Origin: Actinomycetes bacterium
GTDB taxonomy: Bacteria; Actinomycetota; Actinomycetes; Actinomycetales; Microbacteriaceae
NCBI GenBank assembly: GCA_021779075.1
Contig: JAJYBG010000005.1
Coordinates: forward strand, 1-37,088
Reading direction: 5' to 3'
Length of the DNA stretch: 37,088 bases
Shown here in pieces: positions 14,302-15,620 of the stretch; position 1 is the first letter of the stretch; each line of letters begins with the position of its first letter. The notes under the pieces are model-generated. The model saw only the letters and a list, made by a program, of their open reading frames with translations, was not told the origin of the DNA and ran no database searches. The position numbers were made by a program, and so were the translations under genes.

Positions 14302-14793
14302 GTGGCCGATGCGTTCGAGGGCCTGACCGGGACTTCCCGGGTGGCGGCGGATGCCGCAGCACGCGGCCTCGCCGTGGAGATCATCCCGCGCCCCCGCGCG
14401 AACTCCCTCACGGAGGCGGCGGCACTGCTCGGCGTCGCGCCGTCGGGCATCGTCAAGACCCTCGTCGTGGGGCGTCACGACGGCAGCTTCCTGCTGGCGC
14501 TCGTGCCCGGCGGGCGGAAGATCTCCTGGCCCAAGCTGCGCGCCCTCGTCGGCGTCAACAGGCTCGCCATGCCCGACCCGGAAGTGGCGAAGGAGGCGAC
14601 CGGGTACGAGCGCGGCACCATCACGCCGCTCGGATCGGCGATCGCGTGGCCCGTGTTCGCCGACGTGACCATCGTCGGGCAGACCATCCACCTCGGCTCC
14701 GGCGAGCACGGCTTCTCAGCCCGCGCCGAGGCCGACGACCTCATCGCCGCCTACGGGGCGACGGTGGCCGACATCACGGAGCTCGACGAGTAG
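14302..14793 (+). CDS. ybaK: YbaK/EbsC-family aminoacyl-tRNA deacylase
   Basis: A 163-residue single-domain protein of the YbaK/ProX editing family, which hydrolyses mischarged tRNA such as Cys-tRNA(Pro). The conserved core can be followed: SLTEAAALLGVAPSGIVKTLVV (with the active-site Lys), LALVPGGRKISWPKLRALVG, and the GYERGTITPLG loop. The start is GTG at 14302 with a clear GGAGGG 9 nt upstream. A TATCGT hexamer at 14245-14250 could be the -10 box, inside the first codons of the divergent dusB. The precise tRNA substrate cannot be assigned. Confidence 0.88.
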   Translation: MADAFEGLTGTSRVAADAAARGLAVEIIPRPRANSLTEAAALLGVAPSGIVKTLVVGRHDGSFLLALVPGGRKISWPKLRALVGVNRLAMPDPEVAKEATGYERGTITPLGSAIAWPVFADVTIVGQTIHLGSGEHGFSARAEADDLIAAYGATVADITELDE

Positions 14794-14799
14794 GGCCGC

Positions 14800-14937
14800 C
14801 TATCGGCGGCGTGTATCCGCGCGACGATCCACTGGAGCGTCGCCCATCGGCGGAAGCGCGCAGACACCGTCAACGCACATCGCGGCGTCCATCTCGCCGA
14901 GAGGCGTCAGCTCGATAGCAGGCGTGAGATCGCTCAT
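14800..14937 (-). CDS. Small CX4C protein coupled to FrnE-type oxidoreductase
   Basis: A 45-residue product, MSDLTPAIELTPLGEMDAAM followed by CVDGVCALPPMGD and a basic tail. Its start overlaps the stop of the FrnE-type gene as ATGA, so translation is almost certainly coupled. The only striking motif is Cys-Val-Asp-Gly-Val-Cys (CX4C). In Deinococcus radiodurans FrnE a CX4C motif in the protein's own C-terminal tail exchanges disulfides with the CXXC active site, and actinobacterial homologues often end in a C-x4-C-A-[VL]-P-like tail. I infer that this small protein is that tail encoded as a separate chain, or joined by frameshifting. It is too short for most gene finders. It ends seven bases after the convergent ybaK stop. 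Confidence 0.65.
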   Translation of the reverse strand: MSDLTPAIELTPLGEMDAAMCVDGVCALPPMGDAPVDRRADTRRR

Positions 14938-15620
14938 GCGCCGAACGCTCCCGCCCCGGCCTTGGCGCGCTCGGTGAAGACCTCTTCGAGGACATTGGCG
15001 AACACCCGGGCGTCCTGAGCGCCAGAAACGCCGTACTTGCCGTCGATGACGAAGAACGGCACGCCCTGGATGCCGTACGCGACCGCCTGCGCCTGATCCT
15101 CGCGGACCGCCGCGAGGTACGTGTGCTGCTCGAGCGCCGCGCGGAGGGCGGCGCCGTCGAGACCGATCTCCTCGCCGAGTTCGACGAGCGAGTCGACCTT
15201 GCCGACGTGCCTGCCCTCGATGAAATACGCCTTGAGCAACCGCTCCTTCATCTCGAGCTGCTTGCCCTGGGCCTTGGCAAAGTGCACCGCCTCGTGCGCG
15301 AGGACGGTGTTCGTGTGCTGGAGGTGGTCGTAGTCGTAATGGAGCCCGACGGACTCGGCGATGCCGGTCACCCGGTCGAGCATCTCCTGAACCGCCTCGG
15401 CCGGCACGCCCTTGTGGCTCGCGAGGAACTCGGCCTCGCCGCCCTCGAAGTCGACGGGAGTGTCGGGAGACAGCTCGAAGGAGTGGTATTCGATCTCTAC
15501 ATCGCGATCGGGGCCGTTGCCGGCGAACAACCCGGCACCCGCCTCGAACTTGCGCTTGCCGATATAGCACCACGGGCACGCGATGTCGGACCAGACGTCG
15601 ATCTTGATGGGCTCACTCAT
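14934..15620 (-). CDS. DsbA-family oxidoreductase, FrnE type
   Basis: A 228-residue cytosolic thioredoxin-fold protein. The N-terminus IKIDVWSDIACPWCYIGKRKFE carries the CPWC redox pair (Cys15, Cys18); a helical insert follows, and the cis-Pro loop GIQGVPFFVIDGKYGVSGAQ closes the active site. This is the FrnE/2-hydroxychromene-2-carboxylate isomerase-like branch of DsbA. There is no signal peptide, so it acts in the cytoplasm, probably on disulfides under oxidative stress. The start ATG at 15620 is clear; the frame's upstream part is a uppS shadow. The stop overlaps the start of the CX4C mini-gene by 4 nt. It follows uppS by 47 bp on the same strand. Confidence 0.9.
   Translation of the reverse strand: MSEPIKIDVWSDIACPWCYIGKRKFEAGAGLFAGNGPDRDVEIEYHSFELSPDTPVDFEGGEAEFLASHKGVPAEAVQEMLDRVTGIAESVGLHYDYDHLQHTNTVLAHEAVHFAKAQGKQLEMKERLLKAYFIEGRHVGKVDSLVELGEEIGLDGAALRAALEQHTYLAAVREDQAQAVAYGIQGVPFFVIDGKYGVSGAQDARVFANVLEEVFTERAKAGAGAFGA

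What the first reader, a model, noticed from the sequence alone, without database searches (positions are those of the whole stretch)
14800..15620. FrnE-type oxidoreductase with its CX4C element on a separate, coupled mini-protein
The FrnE-like gene ends without a CX4C tail, but an ATGA overlap leads straight into a 45-codon frame whose only motif is CVDGVC, a CX4C. In Deinococcus FrnE the CX4C motif lies in the same chain and exchanges electrons with CXXC. Here the redox partner may be a free peptide acting in trans, or be joined to FrnE by frameshifting at the overlap. It could be a gene fission or a two-component thiol relay that has not been described.
Basis: partly seen in the sequence, partly recalled or inferred. 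Interest (0 to 1): 0.7.

Follow-up and report, generated by a model that had tools for sequence, protein, structure and literature searches.

The report
Redox tail split from FrnE enzyme
A family of bacteria makes the two-cysteine tail of a thiol-disulfide enzyme as a separate tiny protein, usually from a gene that overlaps the enzyme's gene and in some relatives from a distant gene, so the tail probably works as a free partner of the enzyme.

Summary
On the minus strand, a FrnE-type DsbA oxidoreductase (15620..14934, CPWC) ends without a CX4C tail; an ATGA overlap starts a 45-codon frame with CVDGVC. The mini-protein is real: 144 of 213 distinct FrnE loci examined carry a separate CX4C frame, 130 of them with the same one-base-back start. 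Its core is under purifying selection (dN/dS 0.38; shifted frames above 1.5) and an SD-like site often precedes it. The core matches the in-frame tail of FrnE in other Actinobacteria (window ELTPLGEMDAAMCVDGVCALP; fused GLTPLGEPDAAACGPDGCAVP). Split forms group together with fused forms outside, which suggests one ancient gene fission. Frameshift fusion is disfavoured: no slippery site, starts in all three phases, gaps up to about 170 bases, and in part of Microbacterium a free-standing copy hundreds of kb from FrnE. I conclude that it is the detached CX4C arm of FrnE, translated separately and most likely docking in trans on the CPWC site, as the tail of one Deinococcus FrnE molecule does on another. 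Binding and redox activity were not tested. It is a new variant of a known kind.

The parts
14934..15620 (-). FrnE-type DsbA-family oxidoreductase, 228 aa, active site CPWC (C15, C18), no C-terminal CX4C; coordinates include the stop codon
   Evidence: Pfam DSBA E 3.1e-38; PDB FrnE (5cnw) E 2.7e-59; AlphaFold model mean pLDDT 93.9, drFrnE ranks first in the PDB fold search, TM 0.88-0.89
14800..14937 (-). CX4C mini-protein, 45 aa, detached homologue of the FrnE C-terminal tail; coordinates include the stop codon
   Evidence: separate CX4C frame in 144 of 213 FrnE loci; dN/dS 0.38 in close pairs; profile match to fused tails
14934..14937 (-). ATGA junction: mini start codon ATG (14937-14935) overlapping FrnE stop TGA (14936-14934)
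   Evidence: start one base before the stop in 130 of 144 split loci, 77 ATGA and 53 GTGA
14948..14951 (-). Shine-Dalgarno-like GGAG before the mini start
   Evidence: Sequence; SD-like 4-mer in the -15..-4 window in 85 of 130 split loci versus 6-30 of 130 in six shifted control windows and 14 of 52 loci without a mini
14860..14877 (-). CVDGVC codons (CX4C motif, mini residues 21-26)
   Evidence: in 54 independent close pairs of minis no Cys codon changed (the cores were chosen for holding CX4C)

Best explanation
The mini-protein is the C-terminal CX4C redox arm of FrnE, separated from the enzyme by an ancient gene fission in Actinobacteria and now made as its own small, mostly unstructured protein. 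It is normally translated right after FrnE, by coupled re-initiation at the one-base-back ATGA/GTGA, often with its own SD-like site. Shown here by sequence: the gene, its conservation, its homology to fused tails, its own start, and unlinked copies. Inferred: the peptide docks in trans on the CPWC site of FrnE and exchanges disulfides with it, regenerating the active site with electrons from the thioredoxin system or another thiol source. In Deinococcus crystals the tail of one FrnE molecule already docks on the active site of another, so moving the tail to a separate chain needs no new chemistry. Loss of the covalent link would make FrnE recycling tunable by the amount of mini-protein.
For: The enzyme is FrnE by sequence and fold. 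Separate CX4C frame in 144 of 213 distinct loci, all 144 with CPWC in FrnE; dN/dS 0.38 (bootstrap 95% 0.29-0.48) against 1.60 and 1.52 in shifted frames. Fused tails share the core: a profile of split minis run on 213 FrnE proteins has 13 of the 17 fused ones as its first 13 hits, three at E<0.001, five at E<0.01, the rest weak; it finds fused tails in whole genomes (with 39; nine loci); profile-profile probability 97.7%. In a 241-row tree all 163 split rows are on one side of a branch (with 44 tail-less rows; SH-like support 98) and all 26 fused rows on the other. Solo relatives: of 48 Microbacterium genomes with a profile hit (48 of the 64 found), 21 have it on another contig than FrnE and 25 on the same contig 809-2820 kb away; solo core dN/dS 0.25. 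Precedent: drFrnE tail of one molecule at the active site of another, a Cys244-Cys22 intermolecular disulfide, and lower NADPH/TrxR-coupled DTNB reduction when the tail cysteines are lost (PMC8945050 section 2.4, passage read).
Against: No experiment or structure shows binding or electron transfer. 142 of 198 Microbacterium genomes had no hit at E<=0.001 with the solo profile, and 29 of 30 genomes whose FrnE lacks an adjacent mini gave no hit with the linked profile, so some FrnE seem to do without it, or it has diverged beyond detection. Some lineages carry CX5C (Subtercola) or CCGGxCC, which could suit metal binding. The variable Ala/Pro-rich N-terminal stretch has no obvious use in a free peptide. 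Both alignments were picked for CX4C, so the cysteines inflate that score. dN/dS over all, largely saturated, pairs is only 0.59. The partner of the solo minis is unknown.
Confidence: 0.66

Rival explanations
1. The mini-protein is a small metal-binding (Zn, Cu or similar) or metal-sensing peptide that shares an operon with FrnE, rather than its redox arm.
For: Acidic residues between the cysteines (CEGDxC) and the CCGGxCC variants with three or four Cys; Deinococcus frnE is upregulated by cadmium (PMC8945050); a His-containing extension shared by several genera.
Against: The core is homologous to the fused FrnE tail, whose cysteines were reported to react with the active site; 133 of 144 minis have only two Cys; 90 of 94 hits sit directly behind FrnE.
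Confidence: 0.14
2. FrnE and the CX4C frame are joined in a fraction of products by programmed frameshifting or read-through, so the tail is still covalent.
For: In 133 of 144 loci the mini lies in the -1 phase, and one genome (G131) has the two in one open frame after deletions.
Against: No XXXYYYZ heptamer in slip phase in any of 130 loci; an SD-like site precedes the mini start in 85 of 130; the phase is different in 11 of 144 loci and gaps of 31-169 bases occur; solo copies hundreds of kb away.
Confidence: 0.05
3. The mini-protein is a non-redox accessory (for example a plug or stability factor for FrnE) in which the cysteines form a structural hairpin.
For: AlphaFold gives only a short hairpin at the CX4C (residues 20-27, block pLDDT about 72) and otherwise low confidence.
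Against: Homology to a tail reported to act by thiol exchange and to lie next to the active site.
Confidence: 0.12
4. The frame is spurious, or a sequencing frameshift in a single-chain FrnE.
For: The window's assembly is fragmented (197 contigs).
Against: The same overlap is in 130 distinct loci, some in single-contig genomes; coding-type selection; five FrnE loci with an ATGA or GTGA but classed as having no mini show only unrelated, Cys-free frames.
Confidence: 0.01

Closest known systems
Deinococcus radiodurans FrnE (DR_0659; PDB 5cnw, 5co3, 5coh, 5cp1, 5xwh)
   Same: DsbA-like fold (TM 0.88-0.89, 47-48% identity); CXXC active site; a CX4C element that in crystals lies at the active site of another molecule (PMC8945050 passage)
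   Different: In Deinococcus the CX4C is in the same chain (Cys239, Cys244); here it is a separate protein
   Same: The tail core, such as GLTPLGEPDAAACGPDGCAVP, is closely similar to the mini core
   Different: Single chain, in frame
Streptomyces coelicolor SCO1869 (PDB 3gl5)
   Same: Next after drFrnE in the PDB fold search (TM 0.83, 36% identity)
   Different: Whether it carries a CX4C tail was not examined here
WP_326569904.1, annotated 'hypothetical protein', behind a plasmid DsbA-family gene of Streptomyces griseorubiginosus
   Same: One-base overlap behind the FrnE-type gene and a CIDGVC motif
   Different: 65 aa, with a second copy of the unit that has lost one Cys
Detached or opposite-subunit shuttle cysteines in other redox enzymes (thioredoxin reductase tail, Ero1/Erv shuttle disulfide, AhpF domain); recalled, from no call
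   Same: A flexible dithiol carries electrons to or from an active site
   Different: Not homologous; recalled analogies only

Membership tests
FrnE subfamily of DsbA-like oxidoreductases (enzyme part) | DsbA-like thioredoxin domain | tested here: met
   Pfam DSBA 131.9 bits, cut-off 25.6; fold match to drFrnE TM 0.88-0.89
FrnE subfamily of DsbA-like oxidoreductases (enzyme part) | CXXC active site near the N-terminus | tested here: met
   C15-P-W-C18, invariant in 34 aligned sequences
FrnE with CX4C tail (drFrnE type) | CX4C at the C-terminus of the same chain | tested here: not met
   The chain ends ...RAKAGAGAFGA without Cys; the element lies in the downstream frame
FrnE with CX4C tail (drFrnE type) | A homologous CX4C element encoded in the genome | tested here: met
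   Present as a separate protein whose core matches fused tails
FrnE subfamily of DsbA-like oxidoreductases (enzyme part) | Cytoplasmic location | not tested
   No signal-peptide program was run; the N-terminus MSEPIKIDVWSD leads directly into the first strand
drFrnE mechanism | CX4C reacts with the CXXC site and supports TrxR/NADPH-coupled turnover | not testable with these tools
   Needs biochemistry; reported for drFrnE (PMC8945050 passage)
A curated family for the small protein (Pfam, NCBIfam) | Profile match of the 45-aa protein | tested here: not met
   0 families in both libraries at E<=10
Programmed -1 frameshift fusion | Slippery heptamer in phase before the stop | tested here: not met
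   0 of 130 split loci in the last 90 nt

The most novel reading that the evidence does not exclude
The mini-proteins are a class of diffusible dithiol shuttle peptides: detached from FrnE, they recycle it in trans, and in Microbacterium species where the gene stands alone beside an MFS transporter gene, hundreds of kb from FrnE, they may also serve other thiol enzymes: a minimal redox carrier without a thioredoxin fold.
Probability: 0.3. Interest if true: 0.8.

Novelty: new variant of a known kind. Interest (0 to 1): 0.6.

Why it matters
It is a natural experiment in which the redox arm of a disulfide enzyme was cut off and kept as a separate protein. That makes the proposed trans-docking of the FrnE tail directly testable with two separately made proteins. 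It also adds a small-protein family, with no match in Pfam or NCBIfam for the window's member, that is conserved in many genera of Microbacteriaceae and occurs in other Actinobacteria, and it offers a very small candidate dithiol carrier.

Tried and rejected
Frameshift or read-through fusion: rejected by phase, spacing, lack of slippery sites and solo genes. Sequencing error: rejected by conservation. Chance frame: resampled DNA gives 2%. Of the four hits not next to FrnE, G140 lies by what looks like a decayed FrnE remnant, G115:C36 lies at a contig end, G012 is weak (E 0.008) and was fetched but not examined, and G108 is a solo gene. All pairs, many saturated, gave dN/dS 0.59; I rely on close independent pairs (0.38). 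The class 'other' (14 loci) was sorted by eye: 12 to split, 2 to none. Not all FrnE found were used: one search kept the best 80 of 536; of 132 family genomes with a match, 113 are in the tally of 213 and 19, mostly more diverged or fragmentary, are not; of the phylum hits (115 of 296 genomes) the best 30 matches were used. In Microbacterium the linked profile hit only 5 of 198 genomes at E<=0.01; profiles built from those hits, and then from hits of those, found 64 of 198 at E<=0.01 and 56 of 198 at E<=0.001, so the solo family was built up by iteration. In the order, 36 of 396 genomes had a match at E<=0.001 with the linked profile; 26 loci were classed, 17 split and 9 fused. That the genus of G108 is Microbacterium is inferred: one of its members (G584) has a hit at the same contig position as the genome of L071, Microbacterium sp. 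MYb72. A FrnE-mini complex could not be modelled with these tools; the mini alone folds with low confidence. The primary drFrnE papers (PubMed 28899103, PMC3697258) are not held, so I cite the review that describes them.

Literature: search listings showed no title or abstract about a separate CX4C protein; passages were read only in PMC8945050 and PMC11164402, and those passages do not mention one. Most subscription journals are not in that library.

Full report
What is there. On the minus strand of the window, a 228-aa gene (15620..14934) encodes a DsbA-family protein with CPWC at residues 15-18. It matches Deinococcus radiodurans FrnE in the PDB at E 2.7e-59, and in a fold search its AlphaFold model (mean pLDDT 93.9) ranks drFrnE entries first, TM 0.88-0.89. 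It has no cysteine after its SGAQ motif. The stop overlaps the start of a 45-codon frame (ATGA) that reads MSDLTPAIELTPLGEMDAAMCVDGVCALPPMGDAPVDRRADTRRR and matches no Pfam or NCBIfam family.

Is the frame real? I collected 220 loci with 221 FrnE copies, 213 distinct, from named genome contigs (best 80 of 536), from the genus, family and phylum of the window's genome and by direct fetching. After sorting 14 unclear cases by eye, 144 have a separate CX4C (or CX5C) frame behind FrnE, 17 have the motif in the FrnE chain itself, and 52 have neither. The start lies one base back in 130 of the 144 (77 ATGA, 53 GTGA); the other 14 start at offsets from -11 to +136. The phases are 133, 7 and 4. All 144 FrnE have CPWC. 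In 54 independent close pairs no cysteine codon of the core changed (cores were chosen for holding CX4C), dN/dS of the core is 0.38 (bootstrap 0.29-0.48), and the two shifted frames give 1.60 and 1.52; the FrnE body in the same pairs gives 0.17. Using all pairs, many saturated, the core gave 0.59. An SD-like 4-mer precedes the start in 85 of 130 loci, against 6-30 of 130 in six shifted windows and 14 of 52 loci without a mini. Resampled downstream DNA gives a comparable frame in 2% of trials. Of the 52 loci without a mini, five have an ATGA or GTGA at the stop, and their frames hold no Cys.

Is it tied to FrnE? A profile of 61 mini cores searched in 150 whole genomes of the family hit 91 genomes with 94 matches at E<=0.01, 90 of them within 400 bp downstream of FrnE on the same strand. 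59 of 150 genomes had no hit; 18 of 150 had no FrnE match, and among the rest are variants that the profile misses (CX5C in Subtercola; CCGGxCC in Microterricola, Cryobacterium and others) and FrnE with nothing behind it.

Where does it come from? Fused FrnE proteins elsewhere in Actinobacteria end in the same core, for example GLTPLGEPDAAACGPDGCAVP in L305 against ELTPLGEMDAAMCVDGVCALP in the window. A profile made only from split minis, run on all 213 FrnE proteins, gives as its first 13 hits 13 of the 17 fused ones; three reach E<0.001 (best 3.4e-5), five E<0.01, the others are weak, and four fused ones are missed. The 23-column profile also finds fused tails in whole genomes (G332, G343, G173, read; nine loci). 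Profile against profile gives 97.7% probability, with the caveat that both sets were chosen for CX4C. On a FastTree tree of 241 FrnE bodies, one branch (SH-like support 98) has all 163 split rows and 44 tail-less rows on one side and all 26 fused rows on the other (an earlier tree of 213 rows, agrees). This suits a single fission followed by losses. Many other branches are weak, so more than one event is not excluded.

Could the two still be joined? No XXXYYYZ heptamer in slip phase was found in the last 90 bases in any of 130 loci. Frames in all phases and gaps of 31, 52, 75, 86, 136 and about 168 bases argue against any single recoding mechanism. Microbacterium is the strongest case. The Microbacterium FrnE in the set have no tail and no mini behind them, but a profile built from first hits found a related small gene in 64 of 198 genomes of the genus at E<=0.01, and a larger one in 56 of 198 at E<=0.001. 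Of the 30 best loci, 28 have no FrnE in the 3 kb held and an MFS transporter gene beside the mini, 25 of them also an acyltransferase gene (family names from Pfam); the other two lie behind a second FrnE paralogue. I searched 48 of the 64 genomes for FrnE and all 48 have it; the mini is on another contig in 21, on the same contig 809-2820 kb away in 25 (contig coordinates; round a circle some are nearer), and beside the paralogue in 2. The solo core has dN/dS 0.25 in 12 pairs, shifted frames 1.94 and 1.33, and profile probability 96.4% to the linked minis. 142 of 198 genomes gave no hit at E<=0.001, so the solo gene is not general in the genus.

How it most likely works. A review describes drFrnE (passage read, PMC8945050 section 2.4): CXXC at 22-25 and CXXXXC at 239-244; [quoted passage not shown] a Cys244-Cys22 intermolecular disulfide was seen in crystals grown with DTT; DTNB reduction with NADPH and TrxR fell when the tail cysteines were mutated or deleted, while insulin reduction with DTT did not need them; the authors proposed that the tail regenerates the active site. 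The review adds that D. maricopensis and S. roseofulvus FrnE lack the motif. If the tail acts between molecules there, a separate peptide can do the same job. The mini here is predicted mostly without regular structure, with a short hairpin at the cysteines (residues 20-27, block pLDDT about 72). Steps shown by sequence: gene, conservation, homology, separate start, unlinked copies. Steps inferred: docking, disulfide exchange, electron source. Metal binding is the main rival, chiefly because of the acidic CEGDxC and the CCGGxCC variants.

Outside Microbacteriaceae. The split form also occurs in two Solirubrobacter records (L044, L083), Oerskovia (L082, offset 136) and other families of the order (codes f71, f76, f81). 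The Solirubrobacter rows lie inside the Microbacteriaceae part of the tree, so transfer is likely. On two Streptomyces plasmids a FrnE-type gene is followed by an overlapping small gene with one intact (S. griseorubiginosus, annotated 'hypothetical protein') or two intact (S. tendae) CIDG[VL]C motifs. In the order, 360 of 396 genomes had no match at E<=0.001.

Verdict. Confirmed observation; gene fission supported; trans redox partner of FrnE is the most likely function (0.66) but untested. New variant of a known kind.

Noticed in passing
L263-L292 except L265 and L273 (Microbacterium): The 28 solo CX4C mini genes inspected all lie beside an MFS transporter gene, 25 of them also near an acyltransferase gene, several near a DUF6328 gene; why this place is conserved is unexplained.
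   Followed up: partly
L252 (G131:C16:21650-22450): FrnE and mini core are in one open frame after in-frame deletions (SGAQEIRGDADAASCEGEFCELP), with part of the FrnE middle also missing: a natural re-fusion, a decaying gene or an assembly fault.
   Followed up: no
L014, L020, L031, L048, L061, L146: Minis of several genera (Salinibacterium, Lacisediminihabitans and others) share a C-terminal extension like DHHEQAVVNRRLDEDLV of unknown purpose.
   Followed up: no
L037, L055, L066, L110, L154, L163, L176, L218, L219, L220: Minis with a CCGGxCC-type cluster, in some loci behind a gap after FrnE; these could bind metal.
   Followed up: partly
L293:2145-2342 and L294:2145-2345: Streptomyces plasmid minis with a duplicated CX4C unit; one unit of L293 has lost a Cys.
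   Followed up: partly
L154 (G130): Tandem FrnE genes; a mini was found behind only one of them.
   Followed up: no
L258:770-1520 (Microbacterium, G491): A second FrnE paralogue with a CVWC active site is followed by its own CX4C mini.
   Followed up: partly
L066: A record labelled Microthrixaceae carries a FrnE that groups with Microbacterium; probably a mislabelled or contaminated bin.
   Followed up: no
window 14302-14793 +: A tRNA-editing-domain (YbaK-like) gene converges on the mini with only 6 bases between the two stop codons.
   Followed up: no
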